A stretch of DNA of 21,100 bases, from positions 1 through 21,100 of IMG/VR virus record IMGVR_UViG_3300043410_000577; one strand, written 5' to 3'. This document shows, piece after piece, positions 2,212 through 21,100 of the stretch. The stretch comes from a virus. A program made the translations under genes and the position numbers. The notes beneath the pieces are model-generated. The model did no database searches, had not been told where the DNA came from, and saw only the letters and a program-made list of their open reading frames with translations. The first letter of the stretch is position 1. Each line of letters starts with the position of its first letter.

Positions 2212-2378
2212 AGGATAGCTTTCTACTTTTTGTTTTTATCGAGGAGACTTATCGAAACTCCTCTATCTGGGTCTGCCTTCAAGTATGACCTTCAATGTCC
2301 TCGGGCGAACCTCTGAACTCCAATCATACCCAACATTGCCAGCGTTCCATAGTAATATATGGTTGCTGTAACTATCCT
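2212..2378 (-). repeat. E element 1, carrying a pseudoknot-capable insert
   Basis: Outer stem AGGATAG (minus strand, 2378-2372) pairs with CTATCCT (2218-2212). The left arm is followed by TTA and the invariant CAGCA. TTTT precedes it, and the right arm is followed by GTTT. The roughly 140-nt interior contains interleaved complementary pairs: 2283-2288 with 2324-2329, and 2293-2298 with 2333-2338, which is an H-type pseudoknot topology. It also has an 6-bp GAGGAG/CTCCTC hairpin at 2240-2262. No tRNA halves were recognised in this copy. It starts 7 nt after the CCA of tRNA-Thr. Confidence 0.6.
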
Positions 2379-4377: not shown

Positions 4378-4473
4378 CATATTAAAACACACTCATCACT
4401 TTCGGACTAACAAGTCCCGGTGTGAAGTCCTTACAACCTAGAACTATGTCTAAGTAAAGTGTGTTTTAATATG
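4378..4473 (-). repeat. 16-bp stem-closed spacer RNA between tRNA-Glu and tRNA-Leu
   Basis: A perfect 16-bp inverted repeat (4378-4393 with 4458-4473) encloses 64 nt. The interior has a TCAC/GTGA stem topped by GGACT-TGTT-AGTCC with a GAAA bulge, plus a TAGA/TCTA hairpin. The right arm overlaps the CCA of tRNA-Glu, so folding of this stem would compete with the tRNA 3' end. A long stem like this is a likely RNase III-type processing site. Confidence 0.5.
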
Positions 4474-6564: not shown

Positions 6565-6679
6565 AGGTTCTCTTTTTTCGTGCTCCCATTACACCACAGT
6601 GGCGACCAACCCACTGCCGGGATTCGAACCCGGACCCTCTTTTTTGCAGAAAGATTATTTTGATTGCTGAAAAGAACCT
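6565..6679 (-). tRNA. circularly permuted tRNA-Cys-like gene within E element 7
   Basis: On the transcribed strand the order is: AGGTTCT, TTT, CAGCA, then anticodon arm TCTTT-CTGCAAA-AAAGA (6654-6638; anticodon GCA), 4-nt variable region, T arm CCGGG-TTCGAAT-CCCGG (6633-6617), acceptor 3' strand CAGTGG, an 8-nt linker, acceptor 5' strand CCACTG (6602-6597), D arm, then AGAACCT and TTTT. Rejoined at position 26/27 it makes a full tRNA with Cys anticodon and U73. Oddities: no encoded CCA (other tRNAs here have it), a 1-72 mismatch, and the string AAAAAAGAG occurring in both halves, possibly a trace of tandem duplication. The outer 7-bp stem AGGTTCT/AGAACCT belongs to the E family. Confidence 0.7.
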
Positions 6680-6695
6680 TAACGGTCAATAAAAC

Positions 6696-6805
6696 AGGAT
6701 ACATTCTTGACGAATGCTCTACCGAGTGAGCTAATCACGCATGAAGCGTAATGTTGGAATCGAACCAACTACCTATCGTTTGATAGAATTTGCTGTATGT
6801 ATCCT
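6696..6805 (-). tRNA. circularly permuted tRNA-like gene within E element 2
   Basis: Transcribed order: TTTT, AGGATAC, ATA, CAGCA, anticodon 3' region, T arm GTTGG-TTCGATT-CCAAC (6769-6753), acceptor 3' strand ATTACGC (6752-6746), 5-nt linker, acceptor 5' strand GCGTGAT (6740-6734), D arm with GCTC/GAGC, anticodon 5' region, GTATCCT, G, TTTT. The acceptor halves pair over 7 bp (one G-U). The anticodon arm must be assembled from both ends (TTCGT with ACGAT, 4 of 5 pairs); the best loop reads CTATCAA, giving an unusual ATC, so identity is unresolved. No CCA encoded. It lies 5 nt after the CCA of tRNA-Gly(GCC). Confidence 0.65.
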
Positions 6806-6886: not shown

Positions 6887-6892
6887 ATAAAC

Positions 6893-7146
6893 TGTCTAAA
6901 GAAAAAGAGCTCACAGAGTTCTGGTTTGAGATCGATGTCTCCGTGGCAACCAGCGGTTACAGCCGCTCTCTATTTGTCTTGCCTAACGTGGAGCAATTCG
7001 AACAGTCAACGGCATTGATCTGTAATACTATCCGTACATATTCTGTTCAAGTGTGAGTTTTATAAACCCTTCAAGTCAGCCCTTCCGAAGCTAGCTATCG
7101 TCCATACGGAACACTTATATCGCCTTGAGCACTTTTACTTTAGACA
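6893..7146 (-). ncRNA. 254-nt stem-closed structured RNA candidate
   Basis: The ends form an imperfect roughly 20-bp stem: TGTCTAAAG plus AAAAGAGCTC (6893 on) with GAGCACTTTT plus CTTTAGACA (to 7146). The interior has no ORF with a start site and no complete tRNA. One segment (about 6990-7040) contains a T-loop-like TTCGAAT without a good stem, so decayed tRNA sequence is possible. Another interior hairpin is GAGCGGCTGTAACCGCT. It fills the gap between tRNA-Met and tRNA-Gly(GCC). Function unknown. Confidence 0.45.
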
Positions 7147-7209
7147 ACATATTTATAGAATGCCAAGTTGTTCACCGCACAACTATGGCAAAAGCGGGGG
7201 TCTGTAAGT

Positions 7210-7284
7210 TGGTGGTGATGAGTAGAGTCGAACTACCACCGGGCTCCGTATGAAGGAGGTGCACTACCGTTATGCTACATCACC
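7210..7284 (-). tRNA. tRNA with CAT anticodon (elongator Met or Ile2)
   Basis: Acceptor GGTGATG/CATCACC fully paired (unlike the initiator-like copy at 1670), anticodon loop TTCATAC, encoded CCA. Elongator Met or lysidine-modified Ile cannot be separated by eye. Confidence 0.88.
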
Positions 7285-7360
7285 ATATGGAAACACTCTA
7301 AATGGCAGCACCAACATAATTATATTAGTTGAATACCACCAAACAGAATGTTTTCATATG
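7284..7360 (-). repeat. 16-bp stem-closed spacer between tRNA-Lys(TTT) and tRNA-Met
   Basis: 7284-7299 pairs with 7345-7360 over 15 of 16 positions, including CATATG on both sides. A CAAC/GTTG hairpin and TGG/CCA pairing lie inside. It touches both neighbouring tRNAs, like the element at 4378-4473, so it is likely a processing stem. Confidence 0.5.
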
Positions 7361-7624: not shown

Positions 7625-7679
7625 AGGATGCTTATTTTTAGATTAAAAGTCTAATTATAAAATTTGCTGGACGCATCCT
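7625..7679 (-). repeat. E element 3 (no insert)
   Basis: 55 bp: AGGATGC/GCATCCT outer stem, GTC, CAGCA, then an AT-rich loop containing TTAGA/TCTAA, TTTT before the left arm. It begins 5 nt after the CCA of the two-T-arm tRNA at 7685. Confidence 0.65.
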
Positions 7680-7684
7680 AAAAC

Positions 7685-7806
7685 TGGTGTGTAAGGAAGG
7701 AGTTGAACCTTCAACTGGACCATCCTAAGCGACTGCCGCCACCCAAGGGAGTCGAACCCTTAGCCACGGACTGCCGCCCGGGTGTATACCGTTTCACTAC
7801 TTACAC
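7685..7806 (-). tRNA. aberrant tRNA-like gene with two T-arm motifs
   Basis: Outer features are tRNA-like: acceptor GTGTAAG/CTTACAC fully paired, a Leu-type D arm, T arm GAAGG-TTCAACT-CCTTC, encoded CCA. The middle is 71 nt instead of about 23, with a second T-arm-like hairpin AAGGG-TTCGACT-CCCTT flanked by direct repeats of GGCGGCAGTC. The extra length (about 48 nt) equals the insert in the adjacent tRNA-Asp, but the E-type motif is absent. No anticodon arm with U33 can be assigned with confidence (CTTAGGA, anticodon TAG, is one possibility). It may be a recombined or nested tRNA, or a pseudogene. Confidence 0.5.
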
Positions 7807-7811
7807 ATATT

Positions 7812-7934
7812 TGGTGTCGCTGCTGGGATTCGAACCCAGATTCCTTCCTTGACATGGATTAAAGAAATATGCTGAACGTAACCTAAAACAGGCTCACCCT
7901 TTTATAAGTGTCCTAACCATTAGACGACAGCGAC
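7812..7934 (-). tRNA. tRNA-Asp(GTC) interrupted by a 48-nt insert
   Basis: Acceptor GTCGCTG/CAGCGAC, D arm, T arm CTGGG-TTCGAAT-CCCAG and CCA are canonical, but the gene is 123 nt long. Removing 7858-7905 (or 7859-7906; one shared T makes the junction ambiguous) restores the anticodon arm CTTCC-ATGTCAA-GGAAG, a 75-nt tRNA-Asp. The insert lies in the 5' strand of the anticodon stem (about position 29/30), not in the loop. Confidence 0.8.
7858..7905 (-). repeat. E element 6: permuted copy as an intron-like insert
   Basis: The insert carries the same motif as the other E elements in permuted order: right arm GTGAGCCTG, TTTT, left arm AGGTTAC, GTT, CAGCA. The arms pair over 7 bp with one bulged G, closed by the TTTT loop. 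Exon CACTT can also pair with insert AGGGTG around the 5' junction. At 48 nt it is too short for a known group I or II intron. Confidence 0.6.
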
Positions 7935-8802: not shown

Positions 8803-8859
8803 AGGATTCGCTTTTTGCTTTTTTTCAATAAAAGTTTTTTAATTTGCTGAATGAATCCT
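8803..8859 (-). repeat. E element 4 (no insert)
   Basis: 57 bp: AGGATTC/GAATCCT outer stem, ATT, CAGCA, AT-rich loop; TTTT on both sides. It starts 5 nt after the CCA of tRNA-Gln and ends 9 nt before tRNA-Glu. Confidence 0.65.
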
Positions 8860-8947: not shown

Positions 8948-9008
8948 AGGATAGCTTTTGTCGCTAGACAACCATAAGTTTAGCTTAAAAGTTTGCTGTA
9001 ACTATCCT
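8948..9008 (-). repeat. E element 5 (no insert)
   Basis: 61 bp: AGGATAG/CTATCCT outer stem, TTA, CAGCA, loop without tRNA sequence; TTTT on both sides. It starts 5 nt after the CCA of tRNA-Ile and ends 9 nt before tRNA-Gln. Confidence 0.65.
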
Positions 9009-12906: not shown

Positions 12907-14304
12907 TTATTTGCGAGCATTTGCCCGAACTTGCTCAAAAGTAATTTCTTTTACAAGTTTACCATCTCGGTACACTTCTTCCAGCATGTTAACAAATGGT
13001 TCAACTGCTTTATCGTGCCAACCAGTAGGTTGATTAACAGCAGTTATCCATTCGCCACCTGATTTCCAAAGTTGGATACGGCCTGCTTTAGATTTCTTAC
13101 CAGGATCAGTAATTGGATCTTTAACAACATCACGTTCTTCACCGTTTACAATAATGCTAGAGCATTTCATTGCAAACTTTTGAGTATCGCGATCTAGTTG
13201 TTGTAGCAACGCACCGCCCATACCAAACGCAATGTTATCTGCACTCCACCCATATGCTTGGAATCCACCAAGGATCATACGGATTGAATGTTCGTTAACA
13301 CCATCACCTTGGATCAAACGTACATTGTTAAGTACTTTAAAACCCTTGGCGTTTGTAGTATATCCAAACTTTTGTCCAAGAATCTCAACTAGTTTGCGGC
13401 AAACAACATCTGGTTCGCCGGAATCAGGACGGATGACAACAGTAGCGCCAGAATCAATAACCTCTTGTCGGAGCTCTTCTCCCCAAAGTTTCGATGCGGC
13501 ATTAAAAACATCATAGCTATCAGAAACCACAGCAACAATGCTGCCAGGTTTAGCAAAGTTATTAAGCATATTACGATAAGCATCTACTTCACCATCACGG
13601 CCCCAGCTAGTAATTGTTGAGTGCTCGGCGGCAGGGATAGAAAAGCCGCTAATCCCAGCATCATAGTATTCGCGAGCATACAGAACACCAGAAATAGTAT
13701 CACTGCCCATGAAGTTAATAAGGTGTGATGCACCTCCGATACCCGCTGATTCCATGCTAGAAACACCACGAGCACCGAAATCGTGCAACTTAAAGTCAAT
13801 AAGGGAAGGGTCACCTGTAGTCTCCAAATAGTTAAGGATCACTTCGCGGATCTTGTGCGACTGTGTTGCCACAGTAGTAGGATACCAAATTGCACGAAGC
13901 AATGCAGTTTCCAACCAAGTTGTTAGCCAGAAACATTCTGGATCTGTGTTTTCAATTGTTGCAAGCACCTGCTTGACAGGTACAACTGTTCCTTCGGGGA
14001 CGGCACGGATGACAACTGGGAGGTATCCATTGTGCTTGTCAAGAATGTACTGCCATCCTGCTCTGTTGAAAGGCTCACCGTGTGCGGTAAGGATTTCATC
14101 AGCCACATCAATGTCTTGTTGTGTGATGGGCTCGAGTAAGTACTCTTTAATGAATGCCTGGAGTCCAAAGAATACTGTCTGATCGTAACGTCCGCCTCGG
14201 GATTCAATGTAAGAATATACACCTGTAGTACCTGCTGGGTATTGTTTGAACATGCTAACTTTGTAGCTGTCAGTGTTAAGAATGATGTTTTTTGCTAATT
14301 TCAT
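12907..14304 (-). CDS. nadV: nicotinamide phosphoribosyltransferase (NAMPT)
   Basis: 465 aa, in the family range (460-490). Converts nicotinamide plus PRPP to NMN, the first step of the two-step salvage to NAD+. Diagnostic blocks: YKVSMFKQYP near the N-terminus (human-type DSYK), KLHDFGARGVSS, EHSTITSWGRDGE with the catalytic His, VVIRPDSGEP (PRPP/ribose-binding), IQGDGVN and a final PF-VNMLEEVYRDG segment. Good ribosome binding site (AAGGAG, 7 nt). Located 44 nt downstream of nadM-nudix, in one operon from the promoter at 15450. Large phages such as KVP40 carry the same pair, and NAD+ resynthesis from nicotinamide can counter NADase-based defence. Confidence 0.96.
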   Translation of the reverse strand: MKLAKNIILNTDSYKVSMFKQYPAGTTGVYSYIESRGGRYDQTVFFGLQAFIKEYLLEPITQQDIDVADEILTAHGEPFNRAGWQYILDKHNGYLPVVIRAVPEGTVVPVKQVLATIENTDPECFWLTTWLETALLRAIWYPTTVATQSHKIREVILNYLETTGDPSLIDFKLHDFGARGVSSMESAGIGGASHLINFMGSDTISGVLYAREYYDAGISGFSIPAAEHSTITSWGRDGEVDAYRNMLNNFAKPGSIVAVVSDSYDVFNAASKLWGEELRQEVIDSGATVVIRPDSGEPDVVCRKLVEILGQKFGYTTNAKGFKVLNNVRLIQGDGVNEHSIRMILGGFQAYGWSADNIAFGMGGALLQQLDRDTQKFAMKCSSIIVNGEERDVVKDPITDPGKKSKAGRIQLWKSGGEWITAVNQPTGWHDKAVEPFVNMLEEVYRDGKLVKEITFEQVRANARK

Positions 14305-14348
14305 GATAAACTCCTTATCGTTTGTATTACAGCCTTTGCGTCTATCGC

Positions 14349-15383
14349 TTAGGCACCCACGAAGTGTTGTAGGATTTCGTAGTGGTCTTCAAAGCAGTCT
14401 TCCGACCGGACTTCTGCAATAGGCACCCACTTAGCCTTTTCTGCATCATCACTACCTTTGACTTTTGGAAGTTCGCCGTCAGGCAGGACAATGTGGAAAG
14501 CGTGTGTAATTATACGTCCACGAGGACTTCTGTCAATAGCGTCAAACACTTTACTACGAACAATATTGCCACGTAGTACAGGTTCTGGTACTTTGATTTT
14601 AGTTTCTTCGCGGAGTTCGCGCAACATTGCGGCTTCTACTGATTTGTCAGTATTAGCGTTGACGTAGCCGCCGGGCAAAGCCCACAAACCTTTACCAGGT
14701 TCGGCACGGCGACGGATCATTAGTACGTGACCAGATTGGATAACCACTGCGTCAGCAGTACTAAAGATAGGAGGATAAGGTAACGAAGCATATTGTTTCT
14801 TGTAAGTTTCTACAAATTCACGTTCACGAATAATTTGTTCGTATTCTGGGCAAGTAGAAAAACTTGCCAAGAACTCGTATGTAGTAGAAGGAACAACTGC
14901 TTTAATAAAGTTCATGTTAACATCACGCTTGAAAAACAAGTCACGAATGTTAACAGCACTAAGCGGCTCAATTTGTTCTACGTTGACAAAGTCCCACTGC
15001 GGAAACATATCAAGGTAAAAACTAGATTCATCTTTCTTGTGGCCAATAATACCAATTTTAAATTCGCCAGGTCCTTTGGCATCATAGATTGCGTCATTAA
15101 CAATCTTTTGAACACGAACAGCCCATGCTTGGTCGTTGTAAATAGTGTCTGGGTTGCCGTTTACTGACACAGAGATGGCCATGCCGCGGGTAGCATACTT
15201 AATCATCTGCTCGCGTTCTGCGACAGTAAATGGGTTTTTATAAGTGCGTGGTTGATTTGCGGAGCCAGCAACAACAATTAGTTTGTCAGTAAGTGCAGTA
15301 GCACGGCGTACAATCTCTAAGTGAGCATTGTGAAATGGTTGAAACCGTCCGATGAGGACAAGGGCATCATATTGCTTTGACAT
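14349..15383 (-). CDS. nadM: bifunctional NMN adenylyltransferase / Nudix hydrolase
   Basis: 344 aa, two domains. The N-terminal NMNAT domain has GRFQPFHNAH (residues 12-21; HxxH nucleotide-transfer motif) and SAVNIRDLFF (ISTxxxR-like). It makes NAD+ from NMN and ATP. The C-terminal Nudix domain (about residues 205-340) has a full Nudix box GX5EX7REUXEE (GGYVNANTDKSVEAAMLREL, then REETKI), expected to cleave ADP-ribose or related compounds. This matches the bifunctional NadM-Nudix type of Synechocystis and phage KVP40. Ribosome binding site AAAGGA. Together with NAMPT it forms a complete nicotinamide-to-NAD+ route (NARP2-type). Confidence 0.95.
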   Translation of the reverse strand: MSKQYDALVLIGRFQPFHNAHLEIVRRATALTDKLIVVAGSANQPRTYKNPFTVAEREQMIKYATRGMAISVSVNGNPDTIYNDQAWAVRVQKIVNDAIYDAKGPGEFKIGIIGHKKDESSFYLDMFPQWDFVNVEQIEPLSAVNIRDLFFKRDVNMNFIKAVVPSTTYEFLASFSTCPEYEQIIREREFVETYKKQYASLPYPPIFSTADAVVIQSGHVLMIRRRAEPGKGLWALPGGYVNANTDKSVEAAMLRELREETKIKVPEPVLRGNIVRSKVFDAIDRSPRGRIITHAFHIVLPDGELPKVKGSDDAEKAKWVPIAEVRSEDCFEDHYEILQHFVGA

Positions 15384-18825: not shown

Positions 18826-19140
18826 TTACTTCTTTCTTTGTTTGGTGCGTTTGACAGGAATCGAACCTGCTTCCTGGAGTTTTAGAGGCTCCGTGTCATC
18901 CATTGACATCAAACGCTTTAAATCTTTATGTTTGACAATTATAACAATTTTGTATGCATTGTCAACTTTAATTGGCAAATCTAAATGCACTGTTACTTCC
19001 GGGCCTGCCATGCTGACAACACGATCATTGCCAACAGTACCAGCAAACGGAATTCCATTGAATTTTCCAAAGACACGATCTCCTATTTCGTATTTAGGTT
19101 TGTATGCGTTCTTCTCAAAATAATCTGCTAAATTTCCCAT
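18826..19140 (-). CDS. small hypothetical protein whose 3' end contains a tRNA
   Basis: 104 aa from the ATG at 19140, where the -10 element ends 6 nt upstream, so the transcript is probably leaderless or nearly so. The N-terminal 70 residues (MGNLADYFEKNAYKPKYEIG, then DRVFGKFNGIPFAGTVGNDR) look like a small beta-barrel/SH3-type domain. The last 25 or so residues are the reading of the tRNA-like gene at 18843-18916. The normal C-terminus may therefore have been extended or replaced when the tRNA arose or inserted. Confidence 0.75.
   Translation of the reverse strand: MGNLADYFEKNAYKPKYEIGDRVFGKFNGIPFAGTVGNDRVVSMAGPEVTVHLDLPIKVDNAYKIVIIVKHKDLKRLMSMDDTEPLKLQEAGSIPVKRTKQRKK
18843..18916 (-). tRNA. 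amber-suppressor-like tRNA(CTA)
   Basis: Acceptor GCGTTTG/CAAACGC, T arm with GCAGG-TTCGATT-CCTGT, encoded CCA. Anticodon arm GGAGC-CTCTAAA-ACTCC with U33 gives anticodon CUA, which reads the amber codon UAG. The 31-39 pair is C-A, and position 8 is A. It lies away from the main array, inside a coding sequence, with its own promoter. Amino acid identity is unknown. Confidence 0.8.
18938..18965 (-). promoter_or_regulatory. promoter of the tRNA(CTA), inside a CDS
   Basis: TTGACA (18960-18965), 16 bp, TATAAT (18938-18943), about 22 nt upstream of the tRNA 5' end. It allows expression of the tRNA independently of its host gene. Confidence 0.75.
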
Positions 19141-20649: not shown

Positions 20650-20675
20650 AAAAAAATAGGACCCGAAGGTCCTAT
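20650..20675 (-). terminator. intrinsic terminator of the tmRNA transcript
   Basis: ATAGGACC-TTCG-GGTCCTAT, an 8-bp stem with UUCG loop, followed by TTTTTT on the minus strand. Confidence 0.92.
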
Positions 20676-20719
20676 TACTATTTTGGATGACAAGGCATAG
20701 CTGCCTCGGTTCCCGCAGG

Positions 20720-20758
20720 TTATTAAGCTGCTAAAGCAAACTCGCTGTCGTTAACAGC
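20720..20758 (-). other. tmRNA tag reading frame
   Basis: Resume codon GCT at 20758, then AVNDSEFALAA and tandem TAA TAA stops. The ALAA end is the ClpXP/ClpAP degron; the body resembles betaproteobacterial tags (type ANDxxFALAA) with an extra Val. Confidence 0.9.
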
Positions 20759-20880
20759 TACGTCTACTTGGAAGAACTGAAATGCTGATTTTGCATTTAT
20801 AGGTTTTGCTTGATTTACGGTCATCGCCTACCGTGTTGCCGTCTCTACTATCTACCCCTGTCGAAACCATGGCAGGCCCA

Positions 20881-21018
20881 TCATAAGGAATCTACGATTG
20901 AAGCTGATAACATATACATTAACAGACTGACTAAAAGTATTCCTAATATCACAGGAGCAAATACAAATAATCCTGTTAAGAATATAGTAGCCAGTATTTT
21001 AATATGTTTCTTATTCAT
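20881..21018 (-). CDS. 45-aa membrane protein nested in the tmRNA intervening segment
   Basis: ATG at 21018 with AAGGA 6 nt upstream; protein starts MNKKHIKILATIFLTGLFVF, then a very hydrophobic run (about residues 8-38), a transmembrane helix or pair, and a short end (ASIVDSL). The TGA stop ends 2 nt before the 5' nucleotide of the tmRNA coding piece. It fills the whole region that normally is a discarded intervening sequence. Function unknown; a small toxin, holin-like or regulatory peptide is possible. Confidence 0.65.
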   Translation of the reverse strand: MNKKHIKILATIFLTGLFVFAPVILGILLVSLLMYMLSASIVDSL

Positions 21019-21100
21019 CAAACTTCCTTATGGTGGACCTGGCGGGAGTCGAACCCGCGTCCAGAAGTCCTTCGCTTTGAAGGGATTACAACAATTCTTT

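What the first reader, a model, noticed from the sequence alone, without database searches (positions are those of the whole stretch)
6565..6805. Two circularly permuted tRNA genes in a phage
At 6565-6679 and 6696-6805 the tRNA halves are swapped: T arm and acceptor 3' strand come before acceptor 5' strand and D arm, joined by a 5- to 8-nt linker. The first recovers a full Cys tRNA (anticodon GCA, U73). Permuted tRNA genes are established only in a few algae and archaea as far as I know. Both copies sit inside the same flanking stem, so they share a mechanism. Neither encodes CCA, whereas the other tRNAs here do.
Basis: partly seen in the sequence, partly recalled or inferred. Interest (0 to 1): 0.95.

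Follow-up and report, generated by a model that had tools for sequence, protein, structure and literature searches.

The report
Phage Y RNAs displaying anticodon arms
The two "scrambled tRNA genes" are two of at least seven small RNAs in this phage that hang pieces of tRNA, often a complete anticodon arm, on one conserved RNA handle; in related phages such RNAs sit next to a gene for a Ro60-like RNA-binding protein, and across phages the anticodon on one scaffold is freely exchanged, which suggests decoys or tethers for enzymes that grip tRNAs.

Summary
The swapped order (T arm before D arm) at 6565-6805 is real and conserved: on 44 relatives of the first copy 93% of predicted pairs form (about 45-50% when slid) and all six acceptor pairs show two-sided changes. 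But these are probably not genes for mature tRNAs. They belong to a modular RNA family (7 copies in the window, ~300 elements in fetched loci): terminal stem AGG..CCUG plus a CAGCA(A) bulge, closing very different bodies: bare anticodon arms, permuted and unpermuted tRNA bodies, larger RNAs. The window even holds an inside-out copy, a CCA-ending tRNA-Asp with the handle at position 26/27. In relatives and isolates (Felix O1, Listeria P100, Cronobacter S13, Synechococcus BUCT-ZZ01, Aeromonas LAh_9) the elements lie beside a DUF2828 gene whose predicted fold matches Ro60: Y-RNA-like tRNA mimics. Among 58 relatives of copy 1 the loop keeps U33 and A37 but carries 14 anticodons, 38 of them Tyr/Ser/Leu on a body with a 4-nt variable region; the acceptor tip is closed and complementary to a conserved leader. 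Both argue against decoding. Most likely use, inferred: Ro60-bound bait for enzymes that read anticodon loops, such as anticodon nucleases.

The parts
6566..6690 (-).
   Evidence: 44 distinct relatives, 93% of predicted pairs form
6697..6804 (-). E3, copy 2: handle closing a YrlA-like body (T arm, 7-bp acceptor with UUCAU loop, D arm) with a 4-nt-loop hairpin in place of the anticodon arm
   Evidence: Rfam YrlA 31.9 bits, below the cut-off of 69
7626..7678 (-). E4: handle closing a bare anticodon arm UUAGA-CUUUUAA-UCUAA (UUU, Lys type)
7812..7934 (-). E5: tRNA-Asp (GUC) in normal order with CCA; the handle is inside out (..GAGCC-UGUUUUA-GGUUAC..CAGCA) inserted at position 26/27
   Evidence: tRNA model 44.8 bits; similar insertions in about ten other loci
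8804..8858 (-). E6: handle closing an anticodon arm CUUUU-AUUGAAA-AAAAG (UGA, Ser type)
   Evidence: weak Dicty_Class_I_RNA match (35.4 bits, cut-off 41.5). The unconstrained fold prefers another hairpin
8949..9007 (-). E7: handle closing a small pseudoknot-like body GCUA..UAGCGACAA, not an anticodon arm
   Evidence: 13 unique relatives; pseudoknot is read by eye
2213..2377 (-). E1: 165-nt member, the type that in related phages often lies just upstream of the Ro60-like gene

Best explanation
The two features are Y-RNA-like small RNAs of a phage Ro60-type ribonucleoprotein, not genes for mature tRNAs. Each has a conserved handle (7-bp terminal stem AGGNUNN/NNANCCU followed by G, with CAGCAA in the bulge) that most likely binds the phage's Ro60-like protein (DUF2828 + vWA-like). 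The handle carries a display module: a bare anticodon arm, a permuted or normal-order tRNA body, or a larger RNA. Shown here by computation: family, structure, covariation, exchange of anticodons on a fixed scaffold, linkage to the Ro60-like gene, Ro60-like fold of a predicted model. Inferred: that the protein binds the handle, and that the displayed arms act as bait or competitors which protein-bound, stable RNA offers to host enzymes that read anticodon loops, most likely anti-phage anticodon nucleases. Changing targets would then drive anticodon exchange. Identity as Ro60-linked closed tRNA mimics about 0.85; the decoy step about 0.4.
For: Seven copies with one handle in the window and 299 matches, 284 unique, in fetched loci. 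Covariation in handle, anticodon, T, acceptor and D helices. Short class: 95 of 126 unique members hold a 7-nt hairpin with at least 4 Watson-Crick pairs; 74 have U33 and purine 37, against 3.2 expected (maximum 11 of 200 shuffles). E2 relatives: U33 57/58, A37 58/58, A38 56/58, but 14 anticodons; all 58 have a 4-nt variable region, 38 with Tyr/Ser/Leu anticodons. Protein: in 65 loci; PHROG 850 'RNA-binding protein' 2e-137; Pfam DUF2828 and DUF7788 over cut-off; found in 19 of 24 element-bearing records of at least 90 kb; in 51 of 65 loci with the gene an element lies on the same strand, median distance 79 bases, 0 of 134 elements opposite. Model (mean pLDDT 74) matches the Trove domain and Thermus phage phiLo, Deinococcus and animal Ro60: Foldseek 5.8e-8, Z 11.4-16.1 over about 360-377 residues, best non-Ro row 10.4. 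Isolates carrying the gene: 21 handle hits where 0.65 are expected. Literature: the Listeria phage homologue CKA15_055 resembles Deinococcus Rsr by HHpred and was detected in purified particles (PMC12282133).
Against: No binding, expression or phenotype data for any of these RNAs. The window is a 21-kb fragment and holds no Ro60-like gene itself; it only shares a neighbouring phosphatase gene with 57 other loci. Rfam YrlA is not met, and TROVE Pfam does not detect the protein. The AlphaFold model is of medium quality. About a quarter of short members show no canonical 7-nt Watson-Crick anticodon arm, and E1- and E7-type bodies show none, so anticodon display cannot be the whole story. Anticodons within one phage are not significantly more distinct than chance (2 duplicates versus 3.6 expected, p 0.28). 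Some relatives, and E5, keep an encoded CCA, which a pure decoy does not need. Loci were chosen by the handle motif, so distances to the gene are conditional on that choice, and related sequences are not independent.
Confidence: 0.6

Rival explanations
1. Classical Y RNA role: the tRNA-like and anticodon-arm modules tether or gate a tRNA-binding enzyme (PNPase as for Deinococcus Y RNA, or an RNA repair or tRNA modification enzyme) on the phage Ro60 ring, so they recruit a partner rather than distract an attacker.
For: Fits known bacterial Y RNAs as described in papers (PMC12282133 and PMC7824862). RNA_ligase family in 8 of 16 element-bearing records; RtcB close by in Listeria P100plus. A bias to U36 or A36 (80 of 95 short members and 50 of 58 E2 relatives, against 18 of 32 phage tRNAs) would also fit enzymes that modify A37.
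Against: Exchange among 14 anticodons on one scaffold is hard to explain by one constant partner. RtcB in only 1 of 16 records.
Confidence: 0.3
2. Genuine circularly permuted tRNA genes: the precursor is circularised at the handle and reopened at the acceptor loop to give mature tRNA-Cys and its cousins.
For: Correct permuted order with T and D loop consensus; acceptor covariation. E5 and cousins are the inside-out, CCA-ending form that such a circle would give. Some permuted relatives encode N73-CCA in a linker.
Against: Closed conserved tip loop complementary to the leader; Tyr/Ser/Leu anticodons with a 4-nt variable region; normal tRNAs with the same anticodons in the same phage; bare anticodon arms as the commonest members.
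Confidence: 0.07
3. Degraded tRNA remnants or insertion debris in the tRNA array.
For: Dense, fast-changing array with homing endonucleases in 92 loci.
Against: Compensatory changes in nearly every helix, near-invariant U33 and A37, and the same RNA type in unrelated phage lineages.
Confidence: 0.02
4. Cis-acting processing or regulatory hairpins, for example an autoregulatory leader of the Ro60-like gene or spacers that guide cutting of the tRNA transcript.
For: Many elements lie 3-130 bases upstream of the gene.
Against: Many elements lie in tRNA arrays away from the gene, in several copies, and the body (anticodon arm, tRNA fold) is what is conserved.
Confidence: 0.06

Closest known systems
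Bacterial Y RNAs, YrlA (Rfam RF02553)
   Same: Terminal stem closing a T-arm/acceptor/D-arm body in permuted order with a closed acceptor tip; linked to a Ro60-type protein; reported near Ro60 genes in bacteria and phages (Chen et al. 2014, known here only as cited by PMC12282133 and from general knowledge)
   Different: Different handle sequence, below the Rfam cut-off (31.9 versus 69 bits); many copies per phage; most short members show a real anticodon arm; anticodon exchanged on a fixed scaffold; normal-order tRNAs with the handle inserted
Ro60 / Rsr / TROVE proteins
   Same: Predicted fold of the linked phage protein: helical repeats plus vWA domain; best PDB matches are all Ro60, including Thermus phage phiLo Ro60 (9L5Y)
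   Different: Detected by Pfam DUF2828 and DUF7788, not by the TROVE model; 12-20% identity to solved Ro60 structures
Circularly permuted tRNA genes of red algae and archaea
   Same: 3' half encoded before 5' half
   Different: No sign of an excisable linker in E2/E3; in relatives body and anticodon do not agree; handle stem at 26/27
T4 stable RNAs rnaC and rnaD
   Same: Stable RNAs of unknown role at the end of a phage tRNA cluster; rnaC has a T-arm-like sequence
   Different: No handle match
Dictyostelium class I RNA (RF01414)
   Same: Terminal stem with CAGCAA motif; E6 scores 35.4 bits
   Different: Below cut-off (41.5), different organism and partner; probably convergent

Membership tests
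YrlA / bacterial Y RNA | Rfam RF02553 score at or above the gathering cut-off | tested here: not met
   E3 31.9 bits versus 69; E2 not listed
YrlA / bacterial Y RNA | tRNA-like module with T and D loops in permuted order and closed acceptor tip | tested here: met
   E2 and E3; covariation on 44 E2 relatives
YrlA / bacterial Y RNA | Encoded beside a Ro60-type protein | tested here: met
   In relatives and isolates; not visible in the 21-kb window, which is a fragment
YrlA / bacterial Y RNA | Binds Ro60 | not testable with these tools
   needs biochemistry
Ro60 / TROVE protein | Ro60 fold (helical-repeat ring plus vWA) | tested here: met
   Foldseek E 5.8e-8; Z 16.1 over 377 residues, best unrelated row 10.4; model mean pLDDT 74
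Ro60 / TROVE protein | Pfam TROVE PF05731 | tested here: not met
   0 of 13 element-bearing records, DUF2828 instead
Circularly permuted tRNA gene | 3' half precedes 5' half | tested here: met
Circularly permuted tRNA gene | Body consistent with a tRNA for the encoded anticodon (variable arm class) | tested here: not met
   38 of 58 E2 relatives carry Tyr/Ser/Leu anticodons with a 4-nt variable region; the window's own GCA copy is not in conflict
Circularly permuted tRNA gene | Circular or cut intermediate and mature joined tRNA | not testable with these tools
   needs RNA sequencing
T4 rnaC/rnaD | Shared handle | tested here: not met
   0 descriptor hits in T4 69.5-73.8 kb
Dictyostelium class I RNA | Rfam RF01414 gathering score | tested here: not met
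   best 35.4 versus 41.5

The most novel reading that the evidence does not exclude
Large phages carry a swappable set of anticodon arms on a common RNA handle, held by a phage Ro60 protein (in a Listeria phage also found in purified virions), as decoys against host anticodon nucleases; handle-bearing permuted tRNAs, handle-inserted tRNAs and bare arms are stages of one evolutionary series from tRNA to bait.
Probability: 0.35. Interest if true: 0.92.

Novelty: new variant of a known kind. Interest (0 to 1): 0.78.

Why it matters
It links the little-understood phage Ro60 proteins (669 phage records match by protein) to a concrete set of RNAs, including in the much studied phage Felix O1, and shows that those RNAs display tRNA anticodon arms whose anticodon is exchanged on a fixed scaffold. 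That makes the open question of what phage Ro60 RNPs do directly testable. It also warns that permuted or intron-bearing tRNA calls in phage arrays may be tRNA mimics.

Tried and rejected
Rfam gathering search: no family fits. BLASTN of E1 and E3 against phage isolates: no match, because the family diverges fast; the protein and a structural descriptor found it instead. TROVE Pfam in 13 large records: none, which at first argued against Y RNAs until ORF clustering revealed DUF2828. Cellular genomes: three pattern hits, all without tRNAs and reading as chance matches; this covers only the short TTTTAGGAT subtype. RNA ligase idea for circularisation: RtcB 1/16; T4 Rnl1 0/16 but its controls did not ring; RNA_ligase 8/16; inconclusive. 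Anticodon non-redundancy within a phage: not significant. First hairpin search on E2 relatives allowed G-U pairs and chose a shifted register; repeated with Watson-Crick pairs only. The most abundant Listeria phage CKA15 transcript (26,236-26,727) is not the handle cluster (25,211-25,619), so it is not claimed as expression evidence. Leader-tip pairing: the alignment was out of register in a number of rows and the two sides hardly vary (72% of cells, one two-sided change, L097), so the pairing rests on conserved complementarity, not covariation.

Full report
Observation. The tRNA genes of the window lie on the minus strand. At 6566-6678 and 6697-6804 the order is T arm, acceptor 3' strand, short loop, acceptor 5' strand, D arm, inside one flanking stem; the minimum-energy folds give this layout. 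Copy 1 has a canonical anticodon arm (UCUUU-CUGCAAA-AAAGA, GCA). Copy 2 has only a 4-nt-loop hairpin there and weakly matches Rfam YrlA (31.9 bits, cut-off 69).

The family. The flanking stem is a conserved handle: (UUUU)A-GGNUNN-NN-NCAGCA(A) ... NNANCC-UG. Seven copies lie in the window. The short ones are mostly bare anticodon arms: 95 of 126 have a 7-nt hairpin with Watson-Crick stem, 74 with U33 and purine 37, against 3.2 expected in shuffles. The handle sits at different places of the tRNA: at 26/27 (copy 1), after the anticodon arm, in place of the acceptor stem, or inside out within a normal-order, CCA-ending tRNA (E5 at 7812-7934 and about ten similar loci). The placements other than E5-type were read by eye from the sequences.

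Copy 1 relatives. A second scan gave 66 stretches. On 44 distinct sequences 93.3% of pair cells form, against 44-50% with partners slid by 1-3 columns; 17 of 31 pairs change on both sides, among them all six acceptor pairs. The acceptor tip loop GUUGGUC and an upstream leader UUGACC are conserved and complementary; L097 has GACU with AGUC, a compensating change. U33 is kept in 57 of 58, A37 in 58 of 58, the stem UCUUU/AAAGA in 48, while the anticodon takes 14 values (GUA 23, GGA 8, GAA 7, GCA 5, UAG 3, UGA 3, others). All have a 4-nt variable region although 38 of 58 carry Tyr, Ser or Leu anticodons, which in bacteria go with long variable arms (established knowledge). The window also has normal tRNA genes for Cys GCA, Lys UUU, Ser UGA and Asp GUC. 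So these bodies are unlikely to be decoding tRNAs.

The protein partner. Clustering of open frames in the fetched loci showed a 463-480 aa protein in 65 loci. It matches PHROG 850 'RNA-binding protein' and Pfam DUF2828 plus DUF7788, not TROVE. Its AlphaFold model (mean pLDDT 74.4) has Ro60 structures as best matches, among them Thermus phage phiLo Ro60 (Foldseek 5.8e-8 to 2.2e-6; Z 11.4-16.1, best other row 10.4). In 51 of 65 loci with the gene an element lies on the same strand, median distance 79 bases, mostly upstream, and none of 134 elements is on the other strand. DUF2828 is found in 19 of 24 element-bearing records of at least 90 kb; for comparison 669 of 50,697 phage isolate records match the protein, a base rate that is probably higher in large phages.

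Isolates. Around the gene in nine isolates plus the T4 tRNA region, a strict descriptor finds 21 handle elements where 0.65 are expected: Aeromonas LAh_9 seven, mostly just upstream of the gene; Felix O1 four between its tRNAs, one with a permuted body; Listeria P100plus three upstream of the gene; Synechococcus BUCT-ZZ01 three; Cronobacter S13 two, one of them a permuted body with encoded ACCA, plus handle-inserted tRNAs seen by eye; Vibrio nt-1 and Stenotrophomonas DLP_6 one each, the last weak; none in T4 or mycobacteriophage Gabriela. In Listeria phage CKA15 the homologous protein was detected in purified particles and resembles Deinococcus Rsr by HHpred; its authors suggested Y RNAs for abundant unannotated transcripts upstream of the gene (PMC12282133). 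The handle cluster lies in that stretch, but the one transcript given with coordinates is a different RNA.

Mechanism. Shown by computation: a handle RNA family, tied to a Ro60-like protein, displaying tRNA parts, with anticodons exchanged on a fixed scaffold. Inferred: the protein binds the handle; the RNP offers anticodon arms and tRNA-like bodies to enzymes that recognise tRNAs. Exchange of the anticodon with everything else kept suggests partners or attackers that read the anticodon; anticodon nucleases are a widespread anti-phage weapon (review in PMC7824862), so bait is the preferred reading, with recruitment of a tRNA-binding enzyme as the main rival. The bias to U36/A36 (80 of 95 and 50 of 58) is noted without explanation; relatedness makes its p values too small.

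Novelty. Y RNAs with tRNA-like modules, also in phages, are known (Chen et al. 2014, not held here; cited through PMC12282133 and PMC7765460). The searches in the open-access library found no description of anticodon-arm display, anticodon exchange, handle-inserted tRNAs or the multi-copy arrays; subscription papers and preprints could not be searched.

Noticed in passing
window 20653-21093, minus: A two-piece (permuted) tmRNA, Rfam tmRNA_permuted 136.9 bits, in a phage fragment.
   Followed up: no
window 18843-18916, minus: tRNA with CUA anticodon (called Pyl by ARAGORN), a possible amber suppressor.
   Followed up: no
window 7688-7806, minus: A 119-nt tRNA-like gene with a second T arm nested inside (35.7 bits).
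   Followed up: no
window 4380-4470, 6890-7150, 7284-7359: Spacers of the tRNA array closed by long inverted repeats look like further non-coding RNAs without the handle.
   Followed up: no
window 12907-15383, minus: Frames resembling nicotinamide phosphoribosyltransferase and a NadM-Nudix protein (NAD salvage), as annotated near the Ro60-like gene in Stenotrophomonas DLP_6.
   Followed up: no
window 8804-8858, minus: E6 resembles Dictyostelium class I RNA (35.4 bits): same terminal stem and CAGCAA motif.
   Followed up: partly
L189 (Listeria phage cka15), record positions 26236-26727: The most abundant phage transcript in PMC12282133 is a ~490-nt non-coding RNA near the tRNA genes, not the handle cluster.
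   Followed up: partly
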